The translations under genes were made by a program, and so were the position numbers. A stretch of DNA of 64,000 nt from Periplaneta americana (taxonomy: Eukaryota; Arthropoda; Insecta; Blattodea; Blattidae), in the NCBI RefSeq assembly GCF_040183065.1, contig NC_091120.1, forward strand, positions 15,207,708 through 15,271,707, read 5' to 3'. Positions 5,256 to 59,167 of the stretch are shown piece after piece. Below the pieces are notes generated by a model. The model did not search any database and was not told the origin of the DNA. It saw only the letters and a program-made list of their open reading frames with translations. Within the stretch, counting starts at the first letter, position 1; each line of letters begins with the position of its first letter.

Positions 5256-5388
5256 GTATTTTAATGTTAGATGTGATGAAAATAAATTATTTGTAACAGT
5301 TATTAAATGCACAACACAGTCTGAGCATATTTGCTGACGATATAATTCATATTTTTTTTAATTTTCTTTAGTGTAGTTTCAAACAGGA

Positions 5389-6332
5389 TTCACTGCGGGC
5401 TAAAGCAGGGAGATGCACTATCACCTTTACTTTTTAACTTCGCTCTAGAATGTGCCATTAAGAAAGTTCAGGATAACAGGCAGGGTTTGGAATTGAACGG
5501 GTTACATCGGCTTCTTGTCTATGCCGATGACGTGAATATGTTAGGAGAAAATCCACAAACGATTAGGGAAAACACGGAAATTTTACTTGAAGCAAGTAAA
5601 GCGATCGGTTTGGAAGTAAATCCCGAAAAGACAAAGTATATGATTATGTCTCGTGACCAGAATATTGTACGAAATGGAAATATAAAAATTGGAGATTTAT
5701 CCTTCGAAGGGGTGGAAAAATTTAAATATCTTGGAGCAACAGTAACAAATATAAATGACACTCGGGAGGAAATTAAACGCAGAATAAATATGGCAAATGC
5801 GTGTTATTATTCGGCTGAGAAGCTTTTATCATCTAGTCTGCTGTCAAAAAATCTGAAAGTTAGAATTTATAAAACAGTTATATTACCGGTTGTTCTGTAT
5901 GGTTGTGAAACTTGGACTCTCACTCTGAGAGAGGAACATAGGTTAAGGGTGTTTGAGAATAAGGTGCTTGGGCTAAGAAGGATGAAGTTACAGGAGAATG
6001 GAGAAAGTTACACAATGCAGAACTGCACGCATTGTATTCTTCACCTGACATAATTAGGAACATTAAATCCAGACGTTTGCGATGGGCAGGGCATGTAGCA
6101 CGTATGGGCGAATCCAGAAATGCATATAGAGTGTTAGTTGGGAGACCGGAGGGAAAAAGACCTTTGGGGATGCCGAGACGTAGATGGGAGGATAATATTA
6201 AAATGAATTTGAGGAAGGTGGGATATGATGATATAGACTGGATTAATCTTGCACAGGATAGGGACCGATGGCGGGCTTATGTGACGGCGGCAATGAACCT
6301 TCGGGTTCCTTAAAAGCCATTTGTAAGTAAGT
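5389..6332 (+). mobile_element. LINE family 1, 5'-truncated copy with 7-bp TSD
   Basis: It carries the C-terminal half of a non-LTR reverse transcriptase: [12 protein letters not shown], the catalytic [13 protein letters not shown] at about 5515, [13 protein letters not shown] and [14 protein letters not shown] frameshift falls near 5970. It ends in a short GTAA-repeat tail. The flanks AACAGGA (5382-5388 and 6333-6339) are a target duplication, and the intact MITE copy at 17653 shows the unoccupied site. The clade was not determined. Confidence 0.85.
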
Positions 6333-6615: not shown

Positions 6616-6647
6616 ATGTGGAAAGTGAGAGAAATAGCCGACAAAGT
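6616..6647 (+). CDS. CLINT1: CLINT1 exon 1
   Basis: Residues 1-11, [10 protein letters not shown] plus two bases of Val; donor GTAAGT. The start is the first ATG and matches the short WKVRE N-terminus of the family's ENTH domain. Confidence 0.9.
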
Positions 6648-9600
6648 GTAAGTTTTTAGATATTTTAAATGTCTATGTATTGTATGACTCTGAAGGTTCA
6701 GCGTTGTTTTGACATAACGATTTAAGTTTAAGGGTATAAATTTAACTATTGAAAGTAAATATTTATTCAGCAGTGCTATTTATTCATAAGCTCTGTTAAT
6801 ACCAAAATGTACCTCATCTTATTTACTTTGCAGTACCAATGTTGTGATGAACTATACTGAAATAGAAGCCAAAGTTAGAGAAGCAACAAACGACGATGCT
6901 TGGGGCCCTACAGGTACCGTAATAGACTTTAGCTATCTGTAGACTATTTACAATAGTTTAAAAGTGTTGAAAATACTTACTATATTTTATTTCTTTTGTT
7001 TAAGGTGCACTTATGCAGGAAGTTGCACAAGGAACATTCACGTATGAACATTTTCCTGAAGTTATGACTATGTTATGGAAGAGAATGCTGCAAGATAATA
7101 AAAAGAATTGGAGGCGGACCTATAAGGTAATACATATCTATTGTGGCAAAAATGGTAGCAGTAGTTATTTTTTTATTTTTGGAATATGTATAACGCGACT
7201 TGAGTCGACGTATAAATAGCTTGACAAAAAAAAAAGTTTGGTTAAAAGATGGCTCTTCAATCAAATTATCCATTCTCCCTTCCCTCCACATTCCATCTCA
7301 TTCTCCATGTCTCTCATTTTTCTTGTCTCTCTTAACTGTTAATCCTGTAACACACACAACCTTACTATTATATTATAAAATACGTAATTATCACTGGAGG
7401 TGTTAAGATTGGAATAAGTGACATTGTCTATCCTACTCAGAAACAGTATCCAATACTTTGAAGTACAGAGCTACAGAAGCAGTTGAAAATGGACACTGTG
7501 AACTATCTTTATTACGTTACAGTTGTCTTATGAGGTTAGAATGACATACCAAGCTGTTATTGGTTAAAAATATAAAAATAAGTAGGGGGGGGATGTCAGA
7601 ACCGAAGAACCAACACACCACTGAACACAAGACACATTTACCTATAATGGCAGCTACTTGCAGCAGTTACGGGGGAGACAAGACGGATTATTTTTGCATA
7701 TCAATGTTAGTTATGCAAGGATACTAGAATTGTAATTAAGTATTGTATAGTCGCACCATCGGATCCATGCCCCCGTAAGATATGCGAACTGAACCCTAAT
7801 TTCTTCTCAGTCTCGGTAATTCGTTTCCCTCCCTGCATTCCTATCTCTCTCCCTTTCTCTCCCCCATTATTCACAATTTTGGCCTTCTTGCGGGACAGTT
7901 TACAATATTTGCACTTGCAGTCCAGTGTTGTCAACTCAACATGAATACTATAGCACGGAGTGGCGAAAGAAATATTATTAAGTAAATACGTAATAGCATT
8001 TTGCGAAGAAGAGAAACAAACAAGTCATTATCTGTTTCCTATAAATCAGGCAACGAAAAGAGCAGCTGATATCACAGGTGAGGCTTATTTTATTTCAATT
8101 GATTACGTATTAAAATTACTTACTTAACTAATACTAATAATACAACATTTTATGTAAATTATATAGACAAGTCAGAGCTCCTAATAAATAAAATCAGGAG
8201 AGTGGGAGTCTGTGCAGGAGATGAAAAGCTAGAATCACCAGAGAAGAACAGACCAAGGGAACTTTTAATTATTGTAGGTGATATGAGCCAATGTATTTTA
8301 AGAACAAAGATACAAGAATTTTATACCGTTCAAAAAGAAGTTTCAACATTGAAGAAATTGCTGAAGCTTGCGAGAGAAGCAATAATTTCAAAGGTTGGCG
8401 AGAAAAACAACGGAAAGTGATTCGAGACATGGGATTTAGGTTTAAAAAATGTAGAAATACAAGATGTATTTTGATTGAAAGAAATGATATTGCAGCATGG
8501 AGGACCAGTTATTTATGACACCGTTTGACTGAAGTTTGGCAACATCCCTATTCGGCAAGGTTCGTAGTCTGCTGTTTGACGTGGTGGGAGGAAAGCGGGT
8601 GGAATGGAGTGAGTACAGGCGTTAACTTTTCCAAGAACGACGACAGCACTGAAGGGGCACAGATCCGATGGTCCGACAATAGTTACAAGGTCTTGTCACG
8701 AAATCATACAATAGTTAAGAGTGTACAGCTTCCATAAAATTATTTGCTAGGTCAGACATAAGCGAGAGTATGCGTGGTACTATCGTGTCAGAGGTGGGCG
8801 TGTGAAACGAAGTATCTGAGGTACTTACTTTAAATCAATCAGTTTGACTCATTATAATTAACTTATGTACAATGCTGAGATTTGTAACATTCGTGAAAGA
8901 TGTTGCCACTGTATGCATATCCCATGTGGATCATATGCAGAGACTAAGAGGAAGGCAGAAACTAGGAAAAATTGGAGAATGCAGGGTTTGCAGTGAAAGA
9001 CCTGCCCACGGGCAGAACACGTACGTATGTATATGTATGTATACACACACCCCATATCTCTGATGGACAACCTATACCACTAAATCACATTCCATCCCAA
9101 AGTAACGTTAGTAGGGTGTCTACTGGTAGCAAAAGTAACGAATTTAAGTAATTGGTAATGAAAAGTAACGAAGTTAAAAGTTTGAATGATTGTAGGTAAC
9201 GAAATTGAGCATGTTCTTCTTCACTTATTTCATCTTGCTTAAGGTGGAGCTGAAACAGCTGCAGTTGTAAAAACAAATGTTATTGGAAGAAAAAGCTGAG
9301 GAATTGAAGCCTATTTAACTGAAGATGAGAGAACTTTAGAAACAAGTCTGATGACAGATCGTAAATGACTGGAATGTGATTGTGTTTTCATTGTGCTTAT
9401 GAGTAATTATTAAGTTGTGATAGCTAAAACAAATAGAATATGCCATTAGGAAAATCCAGGATAACAGAGAGGGTTTGAAATTGAACGGGTTAGGCCTATA
9501 TCAGCTGCTTGTCTATGTGGATGACGTGAATATGTTACGAAAAAATCTACAAACGATTAGGAAAAATACGGGAATTTTACTTGAAGCAAGTAAAGAGATA

Positions 9601-12600
9601 GGTTTGGACGTAAAGTAAGACCAAGGTGTTAACATAATGACAGTTATAAAATCGACGGATTTAAAAGGAAATTTGATTTCTGGTCGACATCACAAGTGAG
9701 AAATCTGCTTGAAACTGAAAATATCAGTATATATCGAATAGAGTGTCCAGATTTGAGAAGCTGCCTTCTGAAAAGCAGGCACATTTATCACATTAACTAT
9801 TTTTTACTTTGTAACTACTGAAACATTTTCTTATTTTTATGTTTAACATTGTTTATAATTATGTTTCTAAATATACAACAGAAATGTATGTTAATCAGAC
9901 TTTATTTTGTATTTCATCTCAATACCTCCTCTGCTCTTTATATGACTCAGTGTGTCGCGACCCACACTTTGGGAACCAGTGATCTAGGAAATTGAAAAGG
10001 ATGGAGGGGCATAATCAACTTAAGTTCGCAGCATAGTTCTGGAGTGTTAGAGTTATAATAAACTAGCCGTACCTGTGCGCTCCGCTGCACATGTTAGAAA
10101 TAAATATAAAGTAATTACATAATTAAAATAGGACGTTTGATCCAGGGAACATTCGTGTTTGATAGAAGGATAAATCGTTTAACATGTTACTTAATTTAAA
10201 TTGTATTTTAATAATTAAAATGCGGTCATTTTGGTTCAGAGAGCACTCAGAAGTTACTGTAATAACATTATACCATTATGTCCATCTAGAGAAACTACAC
10301 TTTCCAATGGTGAAATAATAATTAATTATACAAATCGGTTAATTTAGCTTTCGATATTACTTCATACAAACACAGAAACATTCTCTGTAGGCTATCTTTC
10401 ATAGCTTTCGATTGTTGCTGTCCAAGGCCCCTTATAGACGAAGTCGTTTGTTTTTTAATTCATTACATGGCCTTAGATGGCAGTTATTTTAATTTTAAAA
10501 CTCATTTATCTCATTAAATATCAGTCTTATCAAACTTTTTCAAGGAATAAAACTTATCGCAAATTATTTTTAAAGAAACGTTTGTTATGTAACATATTTC
10601 ACAAAAATCAATAATGAGCTAGATATTTCGATTTATTTAATTCAGGCCCCTTTTAAATAACATATTTTGAATGTCATATAGCCTAAAATCTACGTTACAG
10701 CAAACTTAATTTATATTCCAATTTACATATAAATCGGTTCAGCCATTATTGCGTGAAAAGGTAACAAACATCCAGACAGACAGACATACAAACAAAAATT
10801 TCAAAAAAGCGATTTTCGGTTTCAGGGTGGTTAATTGTATATGTTAGGACAAATTATTTTTGGAAAATCGAAAATTACCAGAAAAATTTCGGCTACAGAT
10901 TTATTATTAGTATAGATGATTGTAAAGTTAGTAAGATCCTGTGTTAAAAATAAAAAGTTGACATTTCGTATGCAGGAAGACCTTTGCATAGCAAGTATGA
11001 CGAACTTGGTTTTATTCTCACAAAACTTAAAATAAAATGTAGAATGTAGAATTGTGGCTCGATAATTAAAAATACAGCAACACGGCATCTTGAAGCACAT
11101 AATAGAGTATGTAACTTATTAATTAATTTCCATGAAAATAATTTATTATGCTGCATAGAAAATCGTGTAAAATATGTATTGTGTAATTTACGTGGCCAAC
11201 CCTGTAGATAAGCCACTTCATAGTCGGTGCCTCTGCAAATGCTCTTTGACACCTGTCAACATCATTTGAATCACCAAGACCTTTTAGGACAGAATTGTCA
11301 CTGATGACAAAATGTGTTGTTGTTGTTTTCTAATGCCAGGTGTTTGACGATAAAGTCATTTGACATCTTGCACTCCAATATTTTTCAAAGATATTGTCAT
11401 AGCTAGCCACTGAAGCACAGATTTTGAGGTGTCCCGAATCTTTTTCTTGATTTGAATTGTACAATGGGCAGTTAGGGAATTGATATATTCCAATTCTATG
11501 CAGGTATTTGGCCAAATAGTCATAGGTTGTTGCCAATCTAAATGCAGCTACAGACGGTTTGCGTGGTAAATCGGGAATCAACTGTGGATTATGATGCAGA
11601 GAGTTCCATTTTTTCCCTTGGGATTGTGTTATCAAATTTTGTGTGTTGAAGTCTAAGTATGTAGATTTAATAAATGTTTTCACAGAGTAATACGTAGATT
11701 TAGTAACAGGTCTATAAGTAGCAGTGCTGCCCTTCTTTGCTAAAGCATCTGTATTCTCGTTTCCTGGGATTCCACAATGGGATGGTATCCATTGGAATAC
11801 AATTCTTTTATTGAGTGGTAGTTATTGAGAGAGCATTTTAGTTATTTCTGCTGTGTCCAGAGACTATTGATAGAATAGCTGCTTTGGAATCCCACAATAT
11901 AACTGCATTTTTAAATTTATTGATGTGGCATAGAAGATTCCTGAGACTTTCACTTATTGCAATGATTTCTCCATCAAAGCTTGTTCCATATCCAAGAGAT
12001 CTATAAAGTGAGAAGAGACAGCACGTAACACCTGCACCTGCATCTTATTCCCTGTTCCTTGTTCCATTAGTGTATAAATGAAGTCAGTTTTGTGAAGGAT
12101 ACCTAATATTGTCTCTGAAGACAATTGTTTTATTATTTCATTGTTTACTTCTGATTTCAGTATTTCTTTTGTTAAATTTAGATTATACTCTATATTTAAT
12201 ATTGCATTTTAAGTTTTAAATGTATGATAGTGTAAAGAGAAAATTGGCTCCGGAACATATTAGCCGGAATTTTTAAAATGTTAACATGTGCTTGACAGAA
12301 ATTCAACTCTCTCATGTTTATAGTGGGATATGGTCTTACTTAAATAGGTTTTTATTTTCTATAAACACACGAAAGGAATAATAGGAAACAAAAACAATAA
12401 TCGTACATACACTTAAATGTTTAATCCACATGGAAAATTAAAAAAGACAGAAAAAGACATAGAAATTTTAAAAATTCAAACAATTAACAATATAGGGTAA
12501 ATGGTCTAGTGGTCAGGGCTTCTGGCTATAGTTCATGAGGTCCCGGGTTCGATTCCTGGTTAGAGCACAGGAATTTTTCCTTAAAGGGGATTATTCCTGT

Positions 12601-15600
12601 GTTCGTCCATGGTCTGGAATTTAGGTTAAGTTTAGATTTAAGACCTCTCCTGGCACCACATTATCATAATCATCCTATCACATCATCGGGGTAATGTAAC
12701 TCTGCCTTCCAGGCACCCCAACCTCAGAAGTGGGTTATAATTAAGCCACGGCCAGGAGAGAAGACTAGAAATGTCGAAAAGACAACCTGGTGGCATTGGA
12801 TTAAAAAAAATATTTAATATACAATGACGAAATATGAATCCACCATTACAAAGAGTAAGTGGTGGAATATGGAATGAAAATTCACAATTACATGAAAACT
12901 GATGCTTACAGTTTTTTGGGATGTACAAGACTTAGTATTGGAACCTTATCTGGAGAGCACTCAATATTAACCGGTGGCTTTACAGTGAGATGCTGTTTGA
13001 CAAGGTGAAACCTGCAGTTCAAAGCAAATGCAGAGGACTGCTATCGAAAAATATGTTGTTGCAGAATAATGCTCGTGCATATACTGCTGTTGAAACTTCC
13101 AGGAACTGAAGCTTCCTTCATATAATCTTCAGCAGTCGACCTGGTTGGCGAGTTGGTATAGCGCTGGCCTTCTATGTCCAAGGTTGCGGGTTCGATCCCG
13201 GGCCAGGTCGATGGCATTTAAGTGTGCTTAAATGCGACAGGCTCATGTCAGTAGATTTACTGGCATGTAAAAGAACTCCTGCGGGACAAAATTCCAGCAC
13301 ATCCGGCGACGCTGATATAACCTCTGCAGTTGCTAGCATCGTTAGATAAAACATAACATCTTCAGCTTTTCCCTTCTGACTGCCTGTCAGAGAGGCACCT
13401 CGAGCCAAGAAACGGAGGAAGCGGTGCATGTGTGGCCCACTGAAGCAACATGGACCCACAGCTTTACTTTCCTTCTGGAAGAAGTCGCACTATATATTTT
13501 TCTGCCCGAAATTCTGCCACTGTCTGCTGAGTTTGAACCCACGAACTTCGGTTTCAAAGTACAAGGATGACACTGAATGAGTCCCATTGGTAAATACCCC
13601 TACAAGTCAGTAGTTTCTGGTCAGTATTTTAAATGGAATGTTGTATTAATATGTTTCAGTCACTTTTGCTGCTGAACTATTTGGTGCGCAATGGTTCAGA
13701 ACGTGTTGTGACGTCTGCAAGGGAACACATTTATGATCTTCGTAGTCTAGAAAATTACACTTACATTGATGAGTTTGGGAAGGACCAAGGGATTAATGTA
13801 AGGTAAGTAACGTACAGATACTTTACTGTCAAGTTATTATTTTATCTTATCAACTATAGTATTGAACACACACATCAATATATGAGTACTAAATTACCGC
13901 TCTTTTAATTTTATAGTCCATACCCATGCAGTAACGGTTAGCACGGCTGGCCGTGAAACCAGGTGGCCCGGGTTCGAATCCCGGTCAGGGCAAGTTACCT
14001 AGTTGAGGTTTTTTCTGGGGTTTTCCCTCAACCCAATATGAGCAAATGCTGGGTAACTTTCGGTGTTGGACCCCGGACTCATTTCACCAGCATTATCACC
14101 TTCATATTATTCAGATGCTAAATAACCTAAAATGTTGATACAACGTCGTAAAATAACCTACTTAAATAAAATAAATTAATTTTATATGTGTAGAAATAGG
14201 CTAAGAGGGGTTTAAAATCAGAATTTTAAATTATTCTGATTTTTGAAATGAGCAAATGATGCAGATCTGTTAGATTATTCTCTTTTATGCATCTTTGGTT
14301 TATTTTTTTAACATTCTGATTATGTAAGTATGAGTAAATTTTCTGCCATTCTGTTTTTCCATGGAAAGTGGTTCATTCACATACATTTCTCACGGTGATA
14401 AAATGAGCATAAAACACTGGTTTACCGACATTATTATTTGCACAAATAAAAATTACAGATGATTTTTGAGCTTTCAGGAATGTTAGCCCCTCTGCACCAG
14501 AGGGGCTAATGGACGGTTTACTTTGTTATAGCAGAACCAAGAGGCTTCTTACATCTTGATTTTAAATTTATTATAGACTAGCCGTACTCGCGCGCTTCAC
14601 TGCACTTCTTAGAATTAAATATTGACAAATCTAAATACAGTTTTGTAATTACTTAGTGAATAATAGCTTTTTGTATGTTGTAAGTCGTTTGCTCCTGAAT
14701 CATTTTCAAAGTTGTATTTAAAACTAATGAATTTAACTATTATTATCATGCAATACTTCCTGGAGTTATTCAGTCAACTCTGCTTTTAAGATTGATACTA
14801 TCCCGGTCGGGGCTGGTTGAGATTTTTTCCGGAGTTTTCCCTCAATCCAATATGAGCAAATACTCGGTAACTATTGGTGCTGGAACTCAGACTCATTTCA
14901 CCGGCATTATCACCTTCATCTTATTCAGACGCTAAATAACCTAAGATGTTGATAAAGCATCGTAAAATAATCTACTAAAAAAATAAAAAATAAAAAAAAT
15001 TGATCTGAAATTAAATATACTTGTAAGAATTGAAGGCTCTTACTTCAGCTGGAAGAAAATTTCCAATTACATGATAAGCCTATGCTTGAACTTTAAATGA
15101 TGGCGTAGAATTGACTTTATGTATTTATTGCACAGTTTATTCATTTTATCTATTTTAACACAATTCAATTGAGCTTAGTTAAAATAATGGAATGCTAAGC
15201 TAACATACTATTGCTGCATACTAAATCAATACACTCTCATTGTTCGTTAATTCTCTGAGATGAAAATGAATGTGGTAGGCCTACATAAACATTATTTTAA
15301 GAAATATATGAAACGAATAATATACAGAATAGCCTATCAAGTTTTCTGTGTATAAGAATCTATTTTAATCTTACCTGTCCTCGATTCACTCAGAAGTTAC
15401 TGTAATAGCATATAGCATTATGTCCATCTAGAGAAATACACTTTCCAATGGTGAAATAATAATTAATTATACAAATCGGTTAATTTAGCTTCCGATATTA
15501 CTTCATACAAACACAGAAACATTCTCTGTAGGCTATCTTTCATAGCTTTCGATTGTTGCTGTCCAAGGCCCCTTATAGACGAAGTCATTTGTTTTTTATT

Positions 15601-18600
15601 TCATTATACGGCCTTAGATGGCAGTTATTTTAATGTTAAAACTCATTTATCTCATTAAATATCAGTCCTATCAAAATTTTGCAAAGAATAAAACTTATCG
15701 GAAATCATTTTTAAAGAAACTTTTGTCATGTAACACATTTCACAAAAATCAATAAGCGAGATATTTCGATTTATTTAATTCGGACCCCCTTATAACCCCC
15801 CTTTTAAATAACGTATTTTGAATATCATATAGCCCAAAATCTAAGTTACAACGAACTTAATTTATATTCCAATTTTCATCGAAATCCATTCAGCCATTAT
15901 TGCGTGAAAAGGTAACAAACATCCAGACAGACAGACATACAAACAAAAATTTCAAAAAAGCGATTTTCGGTTTCAGGATGATTAATTATACACGTTAACA
16001 CCAATTATTTTTGGAAAATCGAAAATTACCAGAACAATTTTGGCTACAGATTTATTATTATTATAGTATAGATCAATGATTAAGTCCTTAAAATCATCAT
16101 ACGTAATTCTTAATAATTCCCTATATTTACCGTCTTTCTTCATTATTAACAAACTTTTGAAACAATTGTTTGGCTGAGGGAAAACCCTGGGGAAAAAACC
16201 CCAGTCAGATAACTTGTCTTGGGACAGTGATTTCCACCTGAGCCTGCTCATTTCACAATGTGGACCCAATCTTGTAGTTACACAGTTCAACAGTAGAGTA
16301 ATGTGACATGTGTCAAATTTTAGTTTCTGGCTGTTTGGTTCATACAAGCTCTATATTATTATTCAGAATGATTCCTGACAGTAGATTCTGAAAAAAAAAA
16401 AAAAAATCTTTATGTGCTGTTTTCGTCTAAGAATTCAAGCGGACTTTATCAGAGTGTAAATTCTTACATGTCTTTCAAAACATGGACTGGGCAATGTGCC
16501 TATTGCACAGGTTTTCCAGCCCTAGGTTTGCCCACAGATCACATTCATATTGGTTTGTAATTCTGAATGAAATATTTGCTTATATTCAGTATCCTGAGAC
16601 CTCCATCCTATTGTCTGAACAAATTGTATTATATGTTCCCAGAGGATGTGGAAATTTGGGAAGACCAAGAATGAGAGGGGGGGAGAGGGAGACCATAACA
16701 TTCACTAGAACGTACTACATGCTGGAGTTGGGGGGGGTAGGGGGGGGGAATGTGTGCGTGCATGCTTTTTTTCCAGGTGGAATTTTTTTTGCTGCTTTGC
16801 AACCTTTCTTTGTGTTTAGAATAAAGTGAAAGTGGAACGTGGATTTAGATAGCATATCTCAGCTTTGACATGTTATCTATTTCAATAAGGTTAGGAATAG
16901 TGTGACTTTATTTTGCGTTTCTGCTTTTTTTTTTTTTCAGACATAAAGTTCATGAATTGATCGACTTTATCCAAGATGATGACAAACTTAGAGAAGAAAG
17001 GAAGAAAGCTAAGAAGAATAAAGACAAATATGTTGGAATGTCCAGTGAAGCGTTAGGCATGAGATTTGGTAAGATATTTGATATATGGACTGTGTCCATG
17101 ATTTTTTTCTCCAGATTTTCGTGTTTTGTAACTTGCAGTTGATTTAGGTTGCTTTGAAATTGAAGTTACATGAAAGAAGAACTCTGTGTTTTTAGTATTT
17201 GGCCCTAGATTACAAGATTTATCCAGTAAATAGATCTGCATTTCTTTATATAACAAAATAATTGAAAAGCATTTTGTATCTTAAAGCACAGTCACAAATA
17301 GCTACGTTTGCAGTGCTGCAGTACGAAATACTGTGCAATTCGCATTGCGTACTGTGACGTGTGAACAGCGTTGCAACTCAAAAAGTAATGGTTGTCGAAA
17401 CAGCTGTTTGCAACTTTTTGATGCCGCTTTGAAGTAGTGATGTGTGAGCAGGTTTTTTCAGAATTGTAGCTGTAGCGTTTTTTGTATTGGTTTCATTGGA
17501 ACTTTTACAACTGTGTTATCTAAATGTGGCAGTAGTATATTATACTGTTTCTGTATATTTTATTGTTTGAAGCAGTGAAAATAAACTATTTGTAACAGTT
17601 GCTAAACACACAACATAGACAGTTTTTTAGTTTTTCATAGTGTATTTTTAAACAGGAGACTTGCTAACATTGTTTACGAGAATAGTGATGCTGGTTGTTA
17701 TTAAAGTAAACCCACTATGGCAGCGCAGTGGCTAGAGTGTTAGTCTCATAATCCTGTGGACACTGGTTCAATCTCTGTAAAAGAAACTGTTTAAAATTTC
17801 GTTACATACACACTTCACACAAAGCACTGTCCGCTCATACAAAATTTTTTTGGCACGCTTTCCACTGAAAACAACTGGAATGTAGGAAACCTCGTGTGTT
17901 TTCCACATGTAAAACTTAACACGTGGATATTGAAAGTTTATTATTTCAGTCATTGACTTCACTGTTGTGTATGTTTTAGGTGTTAACGTTTACATAATAA
18001 GTTACAAGACGTATAAACGTTTTCGTTGATCAATGTCAACATCTTCAGATACGAACAATCAATTTTGCAATATCATTACTCTCTACAATCTCTACACGTA
18101 CAATGCATGTTTAATGACATACGGGGATAGAAGCCTGTTAAAATTAATATAATTATAATACACATTAATATTCTAATATTCAAATATGGGTGCCCCTAAT
18201 GTCAATATTTAAAAGTGTACATATGATGTACAATAGATATGCGTTTGCAAGTCTTCACATGTGGGCTGGGATATTAGTGAGTCTTCACATAGCCAGTACA
18301 CAATCAACATCTAAAGAAAGCACATCCACAACAACGATTTTAGGCACCCGACTCACGTCTTGCTGCATAATTCACTACATATACAGTATTGGATTTTGAT
18401 TATTTATCTTGTGAATGAACAGCAACAAAGCAAACGTGCACCACCAAGTCAAAACAAACAACCAAAACCCAATATATTGGCATAAAGATTATTACAATAA
18501 TCTGCTTAAGCATTTACGATAGGCTATGAAGCATACACTATGATATATATTGGAAAGATGTGCATCACTAAAATACGGAGATATGAATAAAACATGTAAT

Positions 18601-30600: not shown

Positions 30601-33600
30601 TTTATTTCCGAGTTATGGCCTTCACAACATTGAAATTCACCGGAACGTTTTTCTTTCCGCAGGTCGTTGCCGTCAAAGGAGACATTAAGAGGGGAGGGCA
30701 CTCTGACAGTTCATTCTGAGGCGAAGGTTACATTCAGTGTTGTGTAGGCGTTAGACTGTGCGACATGTATTCAAATCAAGAGCTGGCAGAGATACACTTC
30801 ATGTACGGTAAGGCGGACAGCAATGCTGCGCTGGCTCGTCGTTTGTACCAGGAGAGGTACCCACAGCGACAATGTCCAGATCGGAAGACATTTGTACGTC
30901 TCCATTACCGTCTGCGAGTATGGAAAATTTAACTCTCCTGGTTTGGGAAGAGGACGACCAAGATCTACAACTCCAGAAGTACAGGAGGAGATTCTGGAGT
31001 CTGTGAACATGACTCCTTCTATCAGCACACGAAGGGTAGCGTTGCAAGTCAATGTTCCTCATACGACTGTCTGGAGACTGTTGAAAGAGTATCAATTGTA
31101 TCCTTATCATTTGCAACGTGTACAGGCCCTGTCACCAGCAGATCACCCTGCACGAGTTAGGTTCTGTCAGTGGTTCTTGCAGCAGTGTGGTGTAAATCCG
31201 AACTTTCCTGCCTTAGTATTATTTACAGATGAAGCACAGTTCACACGAGATGGCATAACAAATTTCCACAATCAGCATGTATGGGCGTATGAAAACCCAC
31301 GTGCAACTGTTCCATCTCATCACCAGGTGCGGTTCTCCCTCAACATGTGGGCCGGTATCATTGGTGATTGATTAGTTGGACCCCATGTACTTGTAAACAG
31401 ACTTACGGGGCAGGCATACACAAACTTCCTGGAAAACACCATACCTCATGTTTTAGAAGACACTCCACTGATCAATCGTCAACACATTCACTTCTTGCAT
31501 GATGGCGCTCCTGCACACTTCAGTCATACGGCTCGCCGGTACTTGGATCGAAGGTTTCCTGATCGATGGATAGGTAGAGGTGGCCCAATTGCTTGGCCTC
31601 CATGCTCACCTGATCTGAACCCTCTCGATTTCTACTTGTGGGGCCATTTAAATCATTGCTTTATTCGTCTCCGGTGCCTGATTTGGAATCCCTTCGGAAT
31701 CGAATTGTGGCATGTTCTGAGGTCATATGCAATACTCCTGGAGTTTGGGATCGTGTTCGCAGGTCAATGAGACATCGATGTGAGGTCTGTATTCAAGCAG
31801 GAGGTGGACATTTTTAACATCTTCTGTAATGACAACGACCTGTGGAAAGAAAAACGTTCCGGTGAATTTCAATGTTGTGAAGGCCATAACTCGGAAATAA
31901 GCATTTCCGGACACATGTTGTAATGAACTATTTTGATTGTCTACATTTGGGAAATACCTGAAATTATGCCCCGTATTTTTTAATCACTCTGTATATTACA
32001 CCTGAGAATGGTAATGTTGATAATGTTATTCTGTTAGGTCTCATGTAACTTTCAGTGATTCATGTGGATTTTCTAGCTTTCGCATTGGCATATATGAGAT
32101 GTATTTTTGTCTTGTGCAACATTTCTTAATTCTCCCATCCCCTTTTATCTCATCCAACCATCTTATTCATCGTCTTCCTTGTTCTGTTTGGGCTATTGTA
32201 TTGTTTCAGATAAAAATTGTTTAGCCTATTCATTATTAATTGAATGTCATAAGGAATTCAGAAATGTCAAATTGTGTTAATATGAGAAAATACAAGTATG
32301 CAGTAGAATTTTTATTAACGTTATTGCATTCCAAAGATGCCTCCGACACCCTATAAAATTATGAAAATATATGTATGCATATACTGGTAGGAAGTTACAG
32401 TCATGTGGCTGTAACTATAAGTTAATGCTTCTCTTGCGACTTAATTCTCATATTGCATGTCTTATCTTCTTCGTGGCTGCAATATTTTGTCTGGACGCAT
32501 GTAATATTTAAGTTATAATAACTAAAACCAACTGAGTCTTGCCATTACAACTAGGCAACATTTAAGTGCGAGTTACTCGTGTTGTTCTGGGCAGTTAAAA
32601 ATCCGCGACCTTCATGAACTGAGTCTCATGGAAAGGAATATAAGAACTATTACAACTAGGTCATCATCTCCGCACTACAGCCTCACATGGGCCTTGGCGT
32701 CCTCAACAATTCTTTTCCATGTTTGTCTTTCCTGTGCCTTCCTCCTCCAATTTCTCACTCCCAGTGCCACCAAGTCATCTGTCACGCCATCCAACCATCT
32801 GAGCCTAGGTCTTCCCTTTTTCCTTATCCCTCCAGTTTCATTAAAAAGCAGCTTTTTGGCTATTTCGTCTTCGCTCGTTCTCATGAGATGACCAAGCCAT
32901 TTTATCCTTTCTGCTTTTATAATCGCCACTATATCCGGTTCTTCATATAACTGATGTAATTCCCTCATTAATCGCTCCATATATTCTTCTTAAGATCTTT
33001 CTTTCGAAAGTTCCCAGAGAATTTTCCTCTCTTTTTGTCAGGGTCCAAGTCTCCGCTCCATAAATCAACACTGGTCTTATCATTGTTTTATAAATTTTAG
33101 TTTTAATCGTACAAGGAACATTCTTTGCTTTTAATATATTTGCTAACCCAAAATAGCTCTTATTGGCTGCTATTAATCTAGCTCCTATTTCACTATCCAT
33201 GGTATTGTTTTCTGTTATTACTGATCCCAAATATTTAAAAGACTTGACCCTCTCAAATGTATCTTAAGCTCATTTGGTATTGATATTCTAGAATACCCAT
33301 TAAACATATATTTTTTCTCTTGATTGATAGCTAATCCCATGTGTCCAGCCTTTTCATTCAGTCTCTCAAATTCATTACTCAGACTTTTGATGTTTCTACT
33401 AATGATAACTACGTCATCAGCAAATGCCAAGGTCTGGGATGTTCTATAGAAAATAGTATTAGTTGTTTGTACTCCAGCTGCCCTTATTACCTTCTCTAGG
33501 GCGACGTTAAACAACAGGCAAGCTAAAGGATCTCCTTGCCTTAATCCCTTACTTATTTCAAATGCTTCCGACAATTCTGCATTTACTTTGACTCTACATT

Positions 33601-36600
33601 TGTTACTCTACATTGTTGCCATTACAACTAGGTGATGTTGCTTAAGTGCGAGTGGCTCATATTGTTCTGAGCGCTCTATGGATTAAGTCGCATGAAAAGT
33701 GATATAAGAACCGTGTTGTGTAATTATATAATGAAATTGAGGGCAGTCATATCGTTGTTGATTTAACTGTCTTTTCTCTGTAACAAATGGGTTGAGAAAT
33801 TGAGGCTTTCATTCAGTATACAGGGACAAAACTGTGTTTTGTAGTAGAGTTACAACTTTTCTTCCTCTTCATTGTTCTTTGCTATTCAAAATTTGTTTCC
33901 CTTTTGTTACAGATATCCACTCTAATACAGACTTGCTTTCTGGCCTTAGTGGAGGTTTTAGTATGCTGCAAACTGCTCCTGTAACCAATAATACTGCTCA
34001 ATCGGCCATGTTGCTTAGCTCCAATCATAACCTTAATCCACTAGAAACCACCTTTACTTCACCAGGTGAGTCGTTTTTCTCAATGCACAACTTTGCAGTT
34101 GTGTCTAGTACCTGTAGTTCTTGATATTGAAGCATAAGAAAGAAACTGGTTGTGTGTAATCTTTTATGATTAATTACATCTATTATTACTTAAGATTTTT
34201 AACATTAATTCATGCAATTGATGGAGGAGGGGGTTCCTAGCATAAGTGGCTTAACTCCACTTTTAGTATTTATTTTGATGTACCGAAGTACATATGATAT
34301 TTCCATGCAGATATTCTGCTTTCTCAGATGATGAGAGAGAGATGGAACGGAGAAAAATTCTCTCCGGCGCCGGGATTTGAACCCGGGTTTTCAGCTCTCC
34401 GTGCTGATGCTTTAACCACTAAGCCACGCCGGATACAATCCCGACACCGTTGAGAATCGTCTCAGATTAAGCTTAATCTGAGACGATTCTCAACGGTGTC
34501 GGGATTGTATCCGGCGTGGCTTAGTGGTTAAAGCATCAGCACGGAGAGCTGAAAACCCGGGTTCAAATCCCGGCGCCGGAGAGAATTTTTCTCCGTTCCA
34601 TCTCTCTCTCATCCACTTTTAGTGTTAAATTTTATGCATATTTTGAAGTGGAAAATAGTGTATCAAATTTTCAGTTAGTTATATTGCTACTTGAATAATT
34701 TCAAGGGAAAAACTGTTTTGGGGCCGGATATCAATCCTGGGATCCATCGCTTAGCACACAAATGCTCTACTGGCTGAGCTATCCTGGATCTACACCCGAC
34801 ACCATCCCAGTTTTTCCCCTCTATATCTGTGTCACTTGAATTGTGGTTTTCTGTTAACGTACCTACAGTGACGTATATATTATGCAAATCTGGCTTTCAG
34901 GTATAGCTCCCTGTGAAATAGACTGGAATAATTTCAGCCCATTTGAGTTGTGTCAATATAGAGGGAAAAATTGGGGTGGTGTCGGTTGTAGTTCCTGGGT
35001 AGCCCAGTCAGTAGAGCATTCATGCGCTAAGTGAAGGGTCCTGGGATCGATACCCGGCCCCTGAACAATTTTTCCCTTGAAATTATTGAAGTCTGCTTCA
35101 CAGGGAGTTATACCTGAAAGCCGGATTTGCATGATATATGCTTCACTTTAGGTATGTTAACAGAAAACCACAATTCAAGTCCCGCAGAGTTTGTGTGCAC
35201 TCAAGGTTGGATTTCTGGCGTCTTGTCAGCCCACTTGAGTTGTTTGGATATAGAGGGAAAAATTGGGACGATGTCGGGTGTAGTTCCTGAGTAGCTCAGT
35301 CGGTAGAGCATTTGTGCGCTAAGCGAAGGGTCTCAGGATCGATACCTGGTCCCGGAACAATTTTTCCCTTGAAATTATTCAAGTCTGCTTCACAGGGCGC
35401 TTATACCTGAAAGCCAGATTTGCATATATTGCTCAGACATAACTGTTCCCTATGAACTCAGGAATTTAGAGCTTTAGTTACGTAATTTCACTTTTCATCA
35501 GACTGGACTTACATGTTTGCTTTGAGTGAGAAATATCAAACCTTAAGCTCTACTTGTAATTTCTTAGTTATTACATACTTCTTGGATGTTTACGTACTTA
35601 CCGAATGTGTGATGAAACAGATGACCAACAATTCACTGAAATGTTTGCATGTTTTGACAAGTGAGGGGGTGGAGGAGGGAGGTCTCTGAGCCCGTTCAGT
35701 TACTGCGTCCTTCAGTTTACAGAGTATTTGGATGATTGAGTCCCTACTGTTGTTTATATGAGATGTTACACTGTATACAGTAGAACCTCGATTATCTGTC
35801 ACCCTATTAACCGATTGATGGATTATCCGACTAACTTTCTCTCTCGCTCTTTTTTTTATGTAGAAAAAATATGAAGTACTGTATGTACATTATATTAGTA
35901 CGAATTTTTTCTACAGAGTATTTTCTTTACAAACCTTTACCCTTATACAGTATGGTCTACTCTTAAAGGGGCCATACTGTCTAACTTCTATGCAAAATGT
36001 TTTCTACAGGTGTCAAAAGAAAATGTGTTGTGCTACGAAAAAAGTACAAGTAATTGTGTGGTTTGGAAAAAGAGAAACTGTGGTTCATCTCGCATCAGAA
36101 TACGAAATAGGAATTACACCTGTGCACGATTTAATGAAAAAAAATAAATAAATAAAGTGTATAAAGTATGTAATCTACAACATGAGACCTGTAGGCCTAC
36201 TGTTCCTATCTTTTCACAGACAGCCGTCATAAGGAGTTTTGTCGTTGAAAATCAGACTTAAATTAGTGAACGTCTGATCTGTTATCTAGAATGTTAAAAC
36301 AGGAGACCACAGAGGAAATTACGAAACTGTATTAATCTATGCACTTAATTTATGAAAACCTTATATGGTACGGATTATCCGATTTTTCGATTAACCGTTC
36401 ACTCCACCCCCTTCATTACCACGGATAATAGAGGTTCTACTGTACTAATATTTATTGACATAGTGAAGAAGTAGTCCAGATATTTTATATTACAGTATTA
36501 GTGGATAAGTATGACCAACCTAGTAAAATTTATTTATTGGATACTGCATGAAATAGTATGAGGAATGTGATGTAAAAGTAATTTATATTGATGGAGCTAG

Positions 36601-39600
36601 GTGATCCTTCAGTCTTGCTATATTGCTCTGAAGATGGAACCGATGGTAAACACTTCCAAAATGCTGTATATATTTAGCCCTAGCTCCCAGTACATGGTGA
36701 AATACTCAAAATTCTTCTCCTGTGAAGTCTCAGAATCTCAAATTAAAGTCTTTTTTTATTTTTATACTGGCTGTACCCTTGCGCTCCACTGCACTTGTTA
36801 GAAATAAATATTTTGATAGAAGTATAAATCGTTTAATATGTTACCTAATTTAAATTGTATTTAAATAATTAAAATGCGATCATTTTGGTCCATAATTAAA
36901 ATAGAACATCTGGTCCAGGGAACATTCGTGTTTGATAGAAGGATAAATCGTTTAATATGTTACCTAATTTAAATTGTATTTAAATAATTAAAATGCGATC
37001 ATTTTGGTCCATAATTAAAATAGAACATCTGGTCCAGGGAACATTCGTGTTTGATACAAGGATAAATCGTTTAATATGTTACCTAATTTAAATTGTATTT
37101 AAATAATTAAAATGCGATCATTTTGGTCCATAATTAAAATAGAACATCTGGTCAAGGGAACATTCGTGTTTGATAGAAGGATAAATCGTTTAATATGTTA
37201 CCTAATTTAAATTGTATTTAAATAATTAAAATGCGATCATTTTGGTCCATAATTAAAATAGAACATCTGGTCCAGGGAACATTCGTGTTTGATACAAGGA
37301 TAAATCGTTTAATATGTTACCTAATTTAAATTGTATTTAAATAATTAAAATGCGATCATTTTGGTCCGTAATTAAAATAGAACATCTGGTCCAGGGAACA
37401 TTCGTGTTTGATGGAAGGATAAATCGTTTAATATGTTACCTAATTTAAATTGTATTTAAATAATTAAAATGCGATCATTTTGGTCCATAATTAAAATAGA
37501 ACATCTGGTCCAGGGAACATTCGTGTTTGATGGAAGGATAAATCGTTTAATATGTTACCTAATTTAAATTGTATTTAAATAATTAAAATGCGATCATTTT
37601 GGTCCATAATTAAAATAGAACATTTGGTCCAGGGAACATTCGTGTTTGATAGAAGGATAAATTGTGCAATATGTTACCTAATTTAAATTGTATTTAAATA
37701 ATTAAAATGTGATCATTTTGGTCCAGAGACACTCATTTGGTGCAATGATAATTTCTTTAACATGTTTCTTAATTGTTATTACATGCAAATAATTAAAATA
37801 TGATCATTTGGTTCAGAGAACATACGTTTTTGATACAATTTGGTCCCATCAAAATTTTGCTTGGAATGAAACGTGTATCAGAAATCATTTTTAAAGAAAC
37901 TTTTGTTATGTAAAATTTTTCACAAAAATCAATAAGCGAGATATTTTGGTTTATTTAATTCAGGCCCCCTTATAATCTCCTTTCAAATAAAGTATTTTGA
38001 ATGCCATATAGGCTAAAATCTAACTTACAACGAACTTAATTTATATTCTAATTTTCATTGAAATCCGTTCAGCCATTATCATGTGAAAAGGTAACGAACA
38101 TCGAGACAGACAGACAATCAAAAATTTCAAAAAAGCTATTTTCGGTCTCAGAATGATAATTATACATGTTAAGACCAATTGTTAATTCTCTGAGATTAAA
38201 ATGAATGTGTTCATAAACATTATTTTAGGAAATACAGGATATGAATATACAGGATATGAATATACAGAATAGCCTATCAAGTTTTCTGTACATAAGAAGC
38301 TATTTTAATCTTACCTGTCCTGGATTCACTCAGAAGTTACTGTAATAACATTATAGCATTATGCCCATCTAGAGAAACTACACTTTCCAATGGTGAAATA
38401 ATAATTAATTATACAAATCGGTTAATTTAGCTTCCGATATTACTTCATACAAACACAGAAACATTCTTGTAGGCTATGTTTAATAGCTTTCGATTGTTGT
38501 TGTCCAAGGCCCCTTATAGACGTCATTTTTTTTTATTTCATTACAGCGACTTAGATGGCGTTATCTTAATTTTAAAACTCATTTATCTCATTAAATATCA
38601 GTCCTATCAAAATTTTGCATGGGATAAAACTTATCGGAAATCATTTTTAAAGAAACTTTTGTTATGTAATAGCTTTCATGAAAATTAATAAGGGAGATAT
38701 TTCGATTTATTTAATTCAAGCCTCCTTATAACCCCCGTTTTAAATAAAGTATTTTGAATGTCATACAGCCTAAAATCTAAGTTACAACGAACTTAATTTA
38801 TATTCCAATTTTGATATAAATTGGTTCAGCCATTATCGCGTGAAAAGGTAACAAACATCCAAACAGACAGACAGACAGACAAACAAAAATTTCAAAAAAG
38901 CGATTTTAGGTTTCAGGATGGTTAATTATACATGTTAGTGGAAAAGCGAAAATTACCAGAAAAATTTCGGCTACAGATTTATTATTAGTATAGATTAATT
39001 ACATGGATGTGGTTAATCATAGAATTGATCAAGAAGTCCAACGTGTGCATTAGATGTAATTATGTCAATAAATCGGGAACCTCGTACACTTTAAACCAGG
39101 ATAATCTGAACCATGTTGTTAAATTTGCAATATGAAACCTTTGCATAACTTGATGTAAGAACAAATAATGTTTTAGACAAATGAATATTTTAAAAATCTT
39201 CCCACTGCTATGTAAACATGTATTTCTCGCAGCATATATTACTGAACTATCCTTGTAGTTCTCAGTTCAGTTCTATGTATCACATGTGCTTACGTCTACA
39301 AGAGTTTTAATGAGGAACACCAAGTGAAATTTATCACCTTGCAGTTACCGAGAGAAGACAGGATATCAAAAGGAAAAGGGAGCCAGAATCATCAGAGGAA
39401 GATGGACGAAGCAACGCGCTTTCGTCTACCTGTGAGAGAGAATCTGATGCAACCAGACTGCAATCAAGGTCGCATTTGGAGTCATTTGAAGAAAGAACAA
39501 ACAGCTTGGATAAACATGATGGAGAGAGTCTTACATCACCTACTGCTGTTGATAATAAATCAATTTACGATAGAATTCATGATGCAACTGCTACTCTAGT

Positions 39601-42600
39601 TTCTCAACTCTCAAATAATTCTCCCAATGTAAAATCTATTAAATTGCTACTCAAATCTTTGGTAACTTTTATGCCAGGACCTTTTACACCACAGAAGTTA
39701 TGTGGAGTTGATGTTACATCCTCAGATTTAACTATATTTTACGAGACCCAGTATGGACAAGTGCTGGAAGCTCTTTTAGAAAGTTACAATCCTGTATGGT
39801 TTGACCAGGATATCGAAGTTCTCGTTAGTAATCTAGTGGTGATCGATGGGGGTGGAGTTACTCTTTTGTATGAGTCACTCAGTGTATTAACCAGAGCTTT
39901 AAGAGATACAAAACCAAGTCAGAAACAGGACTTCATAATTGACATGCTAGAGAAGTTAGTTCAGAGTAGGGAAATCGTGTCCGCAGTACTAGATCAGTGT
40001 GGTGTTGAGAATGCTAAGCCACCGCACAGTCAGTTTGTGCATATTTGGGAGGACACTGTACAGTTGTTGGTGTCATTGCCAAGTAGAGTGTCGAACAAAA
40101 TTAAATTTGTCAAGGATGTTTTTGTACCTGACTTCTATTGTAAAATTTTATGTTGTCACATAGCAAGGTGCATTCAGTTCCTGTCAGAAGCTACTTTGAA
40201 AAAATGCACACCACAGAATCTATCAGTATTATCTCTCCTTCTCAGTAAAATCATTACAAATTTCAATGACTATGGGAAATCAGATGGCTTACTGAAATTG
40301 ATATCTATTTTTGAAGATTGGTGTTTACATTCTGCTTATAGTACGATTATACAAACTGTTTTCTTTGGCTTGCAACACAGTGCTGTGGAAGCGAGTGCAA
40401 GAATGGTATTCACAAGGTGTTCAAGTCCGTTGTCAGTGCGGAAGATTCTGGGAAATGTTATTCACAAATCACATAGTTGGACACATGTCCTCTGTACTAA
40501 ATTTCTCATAATGTCATACCACGATTGGCAAGATAGCGCATTTATTGAGAATCTCGTAGGGTATTTAGCTTATTTGCATTTTGAAAATGTGTGCAAAGCT
40601 GTTTCTGGTTCAGATGGTTTGTCATCGAATCCAAACACTGGAATACTAGGTGAAATTATGGCAAACCTCTTGACTGTTTGGGGTGATAAGAGTGCAGTGA
40701 ATCATACTCCTTTAGACCAGCATGTATATATTACTCAGGCTCTTATCCTCGCAGTTCTGTACCTTCATAAGACTAAAGTAGTTCTGAAAGACCAACATGG
40801 AACTTCTGAACATCATAAACCTCTTATATCAAATGAAAAGGAATCAATTAAAAATAAAATTTTCTTAGGTGTTCCCATCCATTTGGAATCTCCAGTTGAA
40901 AGCATACGTGTCATTGGTATGATAACAGCAGAAATAGTGACCAGTGCTCTTCATGCAGACGATGATAATCCTAGTCAACCAAAGCTGCAGTTTGAATATG
41001 CAGACTTGAGTAAGGAAGCTAATCAGATAATGGATGCTCTGAAGAAGTTGACTCCTAAAGAAATTCTAATTGATATGAATGAACATGATAGAAACTTCAA
41101 CAGTACTAGCCAGGCTCTTAATAATTGTGATACTGAGACGCAAACTACTTGCATTACGATGGGCAATCAACATCTACAGGAAATGGAATTGGAATGCAGT
41201 TTGACATTGCCCACACGAGACAGCGACTCAAGTGAGATCATCAGTGTAAAGATAGGAAAGTTCAGTGCACAAGAATTGAATGAAGAACCAGTAATTACGA
41301 AAGGGGATGACAGTATGCATAGCAACAATGAGGTTGAAAGTGATTTGGATAGTGATGATGATTTAATTCCATATGATATGTCAAATGATGTAAAACTTTC
41401 TGCAAGAAAACGACCAAAATATTTACGTGACCTTCATAATGGCTTACTGGAAACTGAAGATCCTGAACGATTCCTTGAGAGTCTGGAAGCTTGTGAAGAA
41501 CTTGTTACATCTCAGCTGCCAAATGACGATGTCTCCATGGGAATTGAGCTCCTTGAAGTCTTGCTTTGCCTAGAGGAGAAATTTTGTGTTGATCATTTTG
41601 ATGTTCGTCGTTTTTCTGCATCTGTTGCCATAGTCACCGTATTCCCGGCGCCGTGTGCAGAGTACCTTTGTTCTCAGTTTAGTTCAGGTTTTGGTAAATA
41701 TTCTATAGGACAAAGATTATTCATGCTTGACTGCTTAGCAGGTGCTGCAAAGAAGCTCTCTTCTTTCAAAACTACTACAGAAGATTCTGAAAGTCTGGGA
41801 AAGTTTAAAATGGAAACTAACAGAAAATTAAGTAATTTAAAGGATAAGAGGGACGAATTTGTGTGTAATGCCTCATTAAACTCGGCAAGGAATATTGTAC
41901 AGAAGAGAATAGAGTCTCATACAAGAAGATTTGTGTCAGCTGCGAAAGCTCCACCTGCTAGTCATGTTAATAAATTTTCTTCAGTTGCTGGCTCATTCTT
42001 TTTCCCTTTGCTTTATGGCATTAGCCAGACATCTGGAGAAAGCTGCTTTTGGAGGAAATCATACGCAGATCACAATTGTTTGCTTCTAGTTCATTTCTTG
42101 CATACACTTGCAGTCGTAATGAATGCGTCTGTCAACTGTCCAGTAGCTACACGAATGGGAAAGGAGTTGCTAGATTTTTGTTGGAACTTGAGGTATCATT
42201 CCGAAGCTAAAGTGCGACTGGCTGTGATGGTGTGTGTGGGAGCAGTGCTAATGGCTGTACCCAGGTCAAGACTGTTGGAATTACAAGAACTTGTACTGGA
42301 GTTCAGATTGTGGCTTATTGAGGCATCAGAAACAGGAGTTGGACGTGGTGATCCAGACTCTGATTGCAGGGAATTTGCATTGTATGTTACGTGGTTGATT
42401 GGAAATACTGTGAATGAGAATGTGTTTGCATCTGGTTTTGTTAATTAGGTACCAAATAATGTTTTAACTTCCACTTTTATTTTCTGTTAAAATAGTTGTG
42501 TGTATTCATACATATGCAAGAATTGAAAATTGTTAATACTCATATTAAGCTCATGTAGATTGCTTGGAAATTCTATCCACTTCATCATACGATAGCAGAG

Positions 42601-58687: not shown

Positions 58688-59167
58688 GTAATACACTGCT
58701 TCATGGCAGTTTGTTGTAACTTACATAATATATAATAGTTTTTGCTCTGATAGGAGTGCAAAGGTAATTATTACAGTGTGGACAGAAGACATGGAGACAT
58801 GATTTGAAATACCTGTATTTTCTGGATTACTGATGTCCAAATGCCCCAACTATTTTTCCACGTAGCACCTATGTAGGTACTAAATCAAATGCCAACAGTA
58901 CCGTATTAACAATGGAAGGCATTTTTTTTAGCATGTGGGCATGTTAAACATGAATTTTATTTCATACAAAATGTTATTTTGTGCGAAATCGTGCGTATTT
59001 GCTTGGTTTCCGCACAAAACCAATCTGCGGAAAGTCTAAAATTCCACATTCAGTATTCCCAACCTAACACACATAACAATTTCCCTCTTCTTACCGCTTA
59101 AGTGACATATTGATTTTACTGCTTTAGGCTTTTAACATATTATTTTTAGAGACGTTCAATATTTTTT
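58688..59167. other. CLINT1 intron 12 start, nothing recognised
   Basis: No repeat ends or exon found. Confidence 0.35.

What the first reader, a model, noticed from the sequence alone, without database searches (positions are those of the whole stretch)
6616..42448. EpsinR-Tel2 fusion gene: TELO2 is an alternative terminal exon of CLINT1
Seen: CLINT1 exon 10 ends in phase 1 (CCA G|GTGAGT at 34065). The 3.1-kb Tel2 exon at 39345 opens after CACCTTGCAG in the matching phase and stays open to a stop at 42448, giving 1503 residues: ENTH domain, disordered tail with two FxDF motifs, charged linker, full Tel2. Known: a translational fusion of Tel2 with EpsinR has been published for Drosophila lqfR. 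Inference: the arrangement is old within insects and may couple Golgi/endosome trafficking with PIKK chaperoning, or may simply borrow a promoter.
Basis: partly seen in the sequence, partly recalled or inferred. Interest (0 to 1): 0.92.

Follow-up and report, generated by a model that had tools for sequence, protein, structure and literature searches.

The report
Insect EpsinR-Tel2 fusion gene
In this cockroach, as in fruit flies and many other insects, the only recognisable copy of the kinase chaperone Tel2 is encoded as the tail of a Golgi trafficking protein, through a choice between alternative last exons; the arrangement is real and old but was already reported in flies in 2012.

Summary
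Ten coding exons (6616-34065) plus exon 39345-42448 translate exactly into the 1503-aa NCBI protein 'TEL2 homolog isoform X1' of Periplaneta americana. Exons 52699-52811 and 58513-58719 instead give a predicted 575-aa EpsinR/CLINT1. The genome search found one Tel2 domain. This is the cockroach counterpart of Drosophila lqfR/tel2, whose authors also noted likely fusion 'in other insects': known in kind. Additions: annotated fusions reach mayflies and damselflies, with Tel2 following an NPLD-like motif, so capture probably predates living winged insects. Tel2 is one exon here, 21 in humans, which suggests a captured retrocopy (inferred). Five braconid wasps have stand-alone Tel2 models with a Met at one shared column, and form a clade within Hymenoptera; that search could not return fused proteins, but one search's listing shows no braconid. 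This suggests secondary separation. The two competing acceptors are the most pyrimidine-poor of twelve. Most likely Tel2 borrows CLINT1's promoter and start codon; functional coupling is less supported.

The parts
6616..34065 (+). Ten shared coding exons of CLINT1/EpsinR (6616-6647, 6834-6913, 7005-7126, 13660-13802, 16941-17068, 23793-23937, 26078-26300, 28357-28589, 30317-30465, 33913-34065): ENTH domain and tail with FGDF and FADF motifs; the last exon ends in phase 1
   Evidence: exact match to P0001 residues 1-469 plus splice signals
39315..39344 (+). Pyrimidine-poor 3' splice region of the Tel2 exon; it is open in the Tel2 frame ([10 protein letters not shown]) after a TGA at 39311-39313, with a possible in-phase upstream acceptor AG at 39313-39314
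   Evidence: sequence; pyrimidine fraction 0.50, second lowest of 12 acceptors; similar ...HLA[AV] in P0014, P0016, P0220, P0222
39345..42448 (+). Single 3104-base Tel2/TELO2 exon with stop; with the last base of exon 10 it gives residues 470-1503 of the fusion; first in-frame ATG at 39671, after seven out-of-frame ATGs
   Evidence: Pfam Telomere_reg-2 1.6e-24, TELO2 structure 7f4u 1.1e-65, ATG positions
43740..43745 (+). First AATAAA after the Tel2 stop; possible poly(A) signal of the fusion mRNA
   Evidence: pattern scan; not shown to be used
52699..52811 (+). Alternative exon 11 of the predicted short EpsinR isoform, joined in phase to 34065
   Evidence: frame and splice signals; acceptor is the most pyrimidine-poor of 12
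58513..58719 (+). Terminal coding exon of the predicted short isoform (ends LLHGSLL, stop); isoform total 575 aa
   Evidence: open frame and acceptor, joined translation

Best explanation
This is the Periplaneta americana lqfR/tel2 gene. One promoter and one start codon serve two proteins. After exon 10 the pre-mRNA is either spliced to the Tel2 exon and ended there, giving ENTH-EpsinR-Tel2 (1503 aa), or the Tel2 exon is skipped and exons 11 and 12 are used, giving EpsinR (575 aa). Shown here: the exon structure, matched phases, a single Tel2 match in the genome, two pyrimidine-poor competing acceptors, and a public protein model identical to the fusion. Shown by others in Drosophila: two mRNA sizes, two protein bands, and rescue of null mutants by exon 6 alone. 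Inferred: that both splices are used in this species; that the fusion arose once before living winged insects diverged, most likely when an intronless Tel2 copy landed in a CLINT1 intron and the parental gene was lost; and that it persists mainly because Tel2 depends on CLINT1's promoter and start codon, terminal-exon choice setting the Tel2 to EpsinR ratio, with the two protein halves acting largely independently.
For: Exact gene model. One Telomere_reg-2 hit in 3.23 Gb; the four ENTH pieces found lie here (two) and at one locus on C9 (two). Seven out-of-frame ATGs precede the first in-frame ATG of the exon, which lies inside the conserved PGPFT region. The competing acceptors at 39345 and 52699 have pyrimidine fractions 0.50 and 0.40, the two lowest of 12. 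117 of the 120 listed hits (253 found) to residues 1-200 among long proteins carry ENTH plus a Tel2 Pfam domain in the precomputed column; all 120 names shown are insects, including Odonata (P0062, P0075) and Ephemeroptera (P0101, P0127). In the rows printed the Tel2 part follows an NPLD/NPLE-like motif in mayflies, locust, cockroaches, termite, planthopper, bugs and a sawfly. Fly mRNA, protein and rescue data. Human TELO2 has 21 exons (passage).
Against: No RNA data for this species were seen. Stand-alone models exist: Anabrus (986 aa), Ignelater, Cryptotermes, Aedes albopictus, a 508-aa Cryptolaemus model and five braconids. A fusion kept in many orders could also mean that the joint protein matters. 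Full-length fly LqfRa has a Golgi-like pattern while exon 6 alone is mainly nuclear, so the fusion does change location. For the fly ~5 kb mRNA one group could not produce and sequence a cDNA, and its protein bands run larger than predicted; RT-PCR of the junction is reported by the other group. Tel2 gene structure in crustaceans, springtails and other non-insect arthropods was not seen, so retrocopy versus intron loss is not settled. Absence of Met in the first 109 residues has a chance of about 0.10. Intron positions outside this species were not seen; the shared break is read from proteins only.
Confidence: 0.78

Rival explanations
1. The fusion is functionally selected: the EpsinR part places Tel2, and so PIKK assembly, at Golgi/endosomal membranes.
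For: Fused models in many insect orders (120 of 253 hits seen); full-length fly LqfRa has a Golgi-like pattern, exon 6 alone is mainly nuclear.
Against: Exon 6 alone rescues fly null mutants to wild type and the authors conclude the parts are independent functions, though they leave other contexts open. Five braconid species have stand-alone Tel2 models (a search that by length could not return fused ones); no braconid is among the 120 listed.
Confidence: 0.17
2. In Periplaneta Tel2 is mainly a separate, internally started transcript, and the fusion model is a prediction artefact.
For: Anabrus, whose model reads YHLA where the acceptor lies here, is annotated as Tel2 alone with 63 residues before the junction residue; the frame here is open for 31 bases upstream of the acceptor.
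Against: No in-frame ATG in the first 109 codons of the exon and seven out-of-frame ATGs before the first in-frame one; a stop at 39311-39313 with no in-frame ATG between it and the acceptor; phases match exactly; in flies an exon 6 probe detects only the ~5 kb band.
Confidence: 0.08
3. Tel2 became single-exon by intron loss after a rearrangement joined it to CLINT1, not by retroposition.
For: Not excluded; intermediate lineages were not seen.
Against: It needs loss of many introns plus a move into an intron of another gene; one retrocopy event would explain both. Long single Tel2 ORFs occur on short contigs from unnamed sources, but that search could not return multi-exon genes.
Confidence: 0.3

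Closest known systems
Drosophila lqfR/tel2 (LqfRa 1415 aa, LqfRb 649 aa; PMC3460857, PMC3197181)
   Same: Shared EpsinR exons, then either a single large Tel2 exon or a downstream EpsinR-specific terminal exon; fusion of ENTH and Tel2
   Different: Ten shared coding exons over 27 kb here, against five in a 7.7-kb gene of seven exons; two downstream coding exons for the short form instead of one. The fly sequence itself was not aligned here.
Human TELO2 and CLINT1
   Same: The Tel2 exon matches the TELO2 structure over both halves; fly lqfR was found by others with human CLINT1
   Different: In vertebrates, yeast and worm the two genes lie in different places (passage); [quoted passage not shown]
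Braconid stand-alone Tel2 models (P0182, P0208, P0213, P0217, P0229)
   Same: Tel2 sequences that fall in the Hymenoptera clade
   Different: No ENTH domain in the listed Pfam column; a Met just before the first Tel2 helix in all five

Membership tests
lqfR/tel2 fusion gene | N-terminal ENTH domain of the EpsinR/CLINT1 type | tested here: met
   PF01417 precomputed on P0001; ENTH pieces found at this locus. The CLINT1 type rests on the fused relatives' names and layout, not on a separate tree.
lqfR/tel2 fusion gene | Tel2 encoded by one 3' exon joined in frame | tested here: met
   39345-42448, phase 1, 1034 residues
lqfR/tel2 fusion gene | Alternative EpsinR-only terminal exon downstream of the Tel2 exon | tested here: met
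   52699-52811 and 58513-58719 give 575 aa without a stop inside; prediction from sequence
lqfR/tel2 fusion gene | Only Tel2 coding sequence in the genome | tested here: met
   one PF10193 hit in 3.23 Gb
lqfR/tel2 fusion gene | mRNA and protein evidence for both isoforms | not testable with these tools
   no reads available; only a public protein model identical to the fusion
Tel2/TELO2 family | Telomere_reg-2 domain and TELO2 solenoid homology | tested here: met
   Telomere_reg-2 86.9 bits over a cut-off of 23.6; TELO2_ARM 23 bits is under its cut-off of 27; PDB 7f4u 1.1e-65
Tel2/TELO2 family | Binds Tti1/Tti2 in the TTT complex | not tested
   the genome search for Tti2 did not complete
Retrogene origin | Intronless copy of a multi-exon parent at a new locus | tested here: inconclusive
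   single exon here, human gene 21 exons; arthropod outgroups not seen

The most novel reading that the evidence does not exclude
A Tel2 retrocopy landed in a CLINT1 intron before living winged insects arose, took over the essential function and made it dependent on CLINT1's promoter, start codon and a contest between two weak terminal acceptors; braconid wasps later undid the fusion by gaining their own start codon, giving a natural experiment on whether the joint protein matters.
Probability: 0.45. Interest if true: 0.6.

Novelty: already known. Interest (0 to 1): 0.4.

Why it matters
The TTT complex, of which Tel2 is a part, is a co-chaperone for PIKK maturation (passage; that this includes ATM, ATR and mTOR is general knowledge), so in these insects an essential factor depends on terminal-exon choice in a Golgi trafficking gene. 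Knock-down or mutation of the shared CLINT1/lqfR exons in such insects should also hit Tel2, which confounds trafficking phenotypes, as the fly work shows. The depth of the fusion and the apparent braconid separation allow a comparative test of why it is kept.

Tried and rejected
I first took the YHLA-containing N-termini of P0014 and Anabrus for a separate upstream Tel2 exon; in the window the same residues are the intron end read through the acceptor, so I dropped that idea and keep the stretch as unexplained. I looked for a CpG peak upstream of the Tel2 exon as a sign of an internal promoter; values between 34 and 39.5 kb vary (0.54-1.50) and the known start shows no clear signal (0.84 and 0.63), so this says nothing. 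Absence of Met in the first 109 residues is weak alone (P about 0.10) and is not shared by Zootermopsis. An NPL-type pattern matched 34 of 116 proteins over 1150 aa, so I claim the motif only for rows printed: 15 of the 16 chosen rows match the looser pattern used there; Macrosteles does not, although one search shows NPLD in it; the thrips row matched only as NLLD and the damselflies as NPV. A viral-contig scan with the Tel2 alignment found nothing. Non-insect arthropods were not visible: one search lists 120 of 253 hits and one search lists 120 of 435, so I make no claim about their state.

Stand-alone models outside braconids: Ignelater and Aedes albopictus sit next to fused relatives in the tree and Cryptotermes has a fused termite relative, Zootermopsis; these are probably split annotations. 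Anabrus is undecided. The tree has long branches for mayflies and damselflies, which are not placed as expected, and its forks among Hymenoptera are partly unresolved; I use it only for braconids falling in the Hymenoptera clade. The braconid Met column: three of five models start there, two (Diachasma, Fopius) begin 21 and 22 residues earlier; among the 13 fused rows none has Met at the column, but P0079 and P0081 have one three columns later.
Full report
Check of the observation. The window is G000:C4:15207708-15271707 of a 3.23-Gb assembly in 91 contigs. The large open frame 39314-42448 is real. A search with its translation returned P0001, a 1503-aa Periplaneta americana protein named 'telomere length regulation protein TEL2 homolog isoform X1', 100% identical. 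Ten upstream exons with standard splice signals plus 39345-42448 reproduce P0001 exactly; exon 10 ends in phase 1 at 34065. The Tel2 part matches Pfam Telomere_reg-2 at 1.6e-24 and PDB 7f4u (taken to be human TELO2) at 1.1e-65, in two stretches, query residues 229-557 and 664-1019.

The other isoform. Exon 52699-52811 joins 34065 in frame and continues at 58513-58719, ending GSLL-stop; the predicted product has 575 aa and 62.6 kDa, against 167.5 kDa for the fusion. The Tel2 exon thus lies inside the intron that the short form removes. The first AATAAA after the Tel2 stop is at 43740.

Copy number. A six-frame search of the whole genome finds one Telomere_reg-2 match, here. ENTH matches are four pieces: two here and two on contig C9; the C9 gene is taken to be the endocytic epsin (inference). 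So this exon is the only recognisable Tel2.

Anatomy bearing on mechanism. Among the 12 acceptors of the two isoforms, those at 39345 (0.50) and 52699 (0.40) have the lowest pyrimidine fraction in positions -23 to -4; the other ten range from 0.55 to 0.95. Two weak acceptors competing for one consensus-like donor (G|GTGAGT) fit a regulated choice of terminal exon; this is inference. Within the Tel2 exon the first in-frame ATG is at 39671, residue 110, after seven out-of-frame ATGs, and it lies in the conserved MPGPFTPQ segment. So without the EpsinR exons a normal Tel2 N-terminus would need another upstream start.

What is known. Lee and Fischer 2012 (PMC3460857; I saw the abstract, part 1 of 3 of Results, the Conclusions and passages) report that fly lqfR makes LqfRa (1415 aa, with exon 6 encoding Tel2) and LqfRb (649 aa) by alternative C-terminal exons, cite RT-PCR of the exon 5-6 junction, and show that exon 6 alone rescues null mutants. 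[quoted passage not shown] PMC3197181 (one section and passages seen) shows by Northern blot that an exon 6 probe detects only the ~5 kb band; [quoted passage not shown] Searches for tel2+epsinr+fusion, lqfr+tel2, tel2+insect+retrogene, telo2+clint1+fusion, lqfr+tti1, lqfr alone, tel2/gene fusion/insects/epsin, and telo2/intronless/arthropod gave, by their listings, no other paper that I recognised as relevant (one search lists 20 of 239). The retrocopy and braconid points were therefore not found in that library; other literature was not searched.

Age. A search with residues 1-200 of P0001, in which candidate length follows the whole 1503-aa protein, gave 253 hits, 120 listed; 117 of the 120 carry ENTH and a Tel2 Pfam domain in the precomputed column; the other three are P0024 (ENTH plus reverse transcriptase), P0046 and P0130 (ENTH only). 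All 120 carry insect names. They include two damselflies (P0062, P0075) and two mayflies (P0101, P0127); Neocloeon and Hetaerina were checked as Ephemeroptera and Odonata. My own scan of six proteins confirms ENTH in all six; Telomere_reg-2 passes its cut-off in both damselflies, the stick insect and the locust; the mayflies show TELO2_ARM at 26.1 and 25.0 bits, under its cut-off of 27, and one also Telomere_reg-2 at 20.5 bits, under its cut-off of 23.6. The mayfly Tel2 call is therefore weaker, though they align over the Tel2 part. In the rows printed the Tel2 part follows an NPLD/NPLE-like motif in mayflies, locust, cockroaches, termite, planthopper, bugs and a sawfly; damselflies have NPVS. 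A shared break point, here read from proteins only, argues for one event before living Pterygota split. 133 hits of that search were not listed, so absence outside insects is not shown.

Stand-alone Tel2. A profile search whose length limit excludes most fused proteins gave 435 hits, 120 listed. Named ones without ENTH are Anabrus, Cryptotermes, Cryptolaemus (508 aa), Aedes albopictus and five wasps, Aphidius, Chelonus, Diachasma, Fopius and Diachasmimorpha, all Braconidae; Ignelater came. The search could not have returned fused braconids of the usual length, but none is among the 120 listed. In an alignment of the five with 13 chosen fused Hymenoptera, all five have Met at one column just before the first Tel2 helix and none of the 13 does; two of the 13 (P0079, P0081) have a Met three columns later, and two of the five models (Diachasma, Fopius) begin 21-22 residues before that Met. 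In a tree of 48 chosen Tel2 regions the braconids form one clade (100/100) within a Hymenoptera clade (100/100) whose other nine members are fused; the order of forks inside Hymenoptera is partly unresolved. That is what secondary loss of the fusion predicts. Whether the braconid gene still lies at the CLINT1 locus is unknown, and an unlisted fused braconid isoform is possible (the Fopius model is called isoform X2).

Origin. Human TELO2 has 21 exons (passage of PMC10199318). Here Tel2 is one exon. Long uninterrupted Tel2 ORFs also appear on short contigs from unnamed sources, several reading through what looks like a phase-1 acceptor end (such as FLTA, FPV or HLA) before the exon, which suggests genomic single-exon Tel2 in other insects; that search could not return multi-exon genes, so it is one-sided. 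A retrocopy that landed in a CLINT1 intron would explain the missing introns, the location and the fusion in one step. This remains inference.

Function. The simplest account is shared transcription and translation start with independent protein functions. Fly rescue and the braconid models favour it; the Golgi-like pattern of the full-length fly protein and broad retention leave some room for coupling.

Verdict. A correct, well-read observation of a known system, extended in depth and with a possible reversal worth testing.

Noticed in passing
39315-39344: The intron end before the Tel2 exon is open in frame and reads [11 protein letters not shown]0014, Anabrus P0016, P0220 and P0222 show similar [IL][YL]HLA[AV] near the start of their models. 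It may be a conserved splice element or an alternative in-phase acceptor.
   Followed up: partly
5346-6050 and 52921-53472: Reverse transcriptase fragments (RVT_1) next to the first exon and just after exon 11; the public model P0024 of this species carries RVT_1 together with ENTH, probably an annotation error.
   Followed up: partly
30748-31368: Transposase-like remnant (HTH_Tnp_Tc3_2, 29 bits, just under its cut-off of 31.5) between exons 9 and 10.
   Followed up: no
49504-49881: Open frame with DUF4817 helix-turn-helix domain in the intron between the Tel2 exon and exon 11; probably mobile-element derived.
   Followed up: no
P0101, P0127, P0062, P0075 (proteins): Tel2 of mayflies and damselflies is strongly diverged, with stem branches of 2.93 and 2.73 changes per column, and mayfly Tel2 parts are shorter (749 and 741 aa in the trimmed set).
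   Followed up: partly
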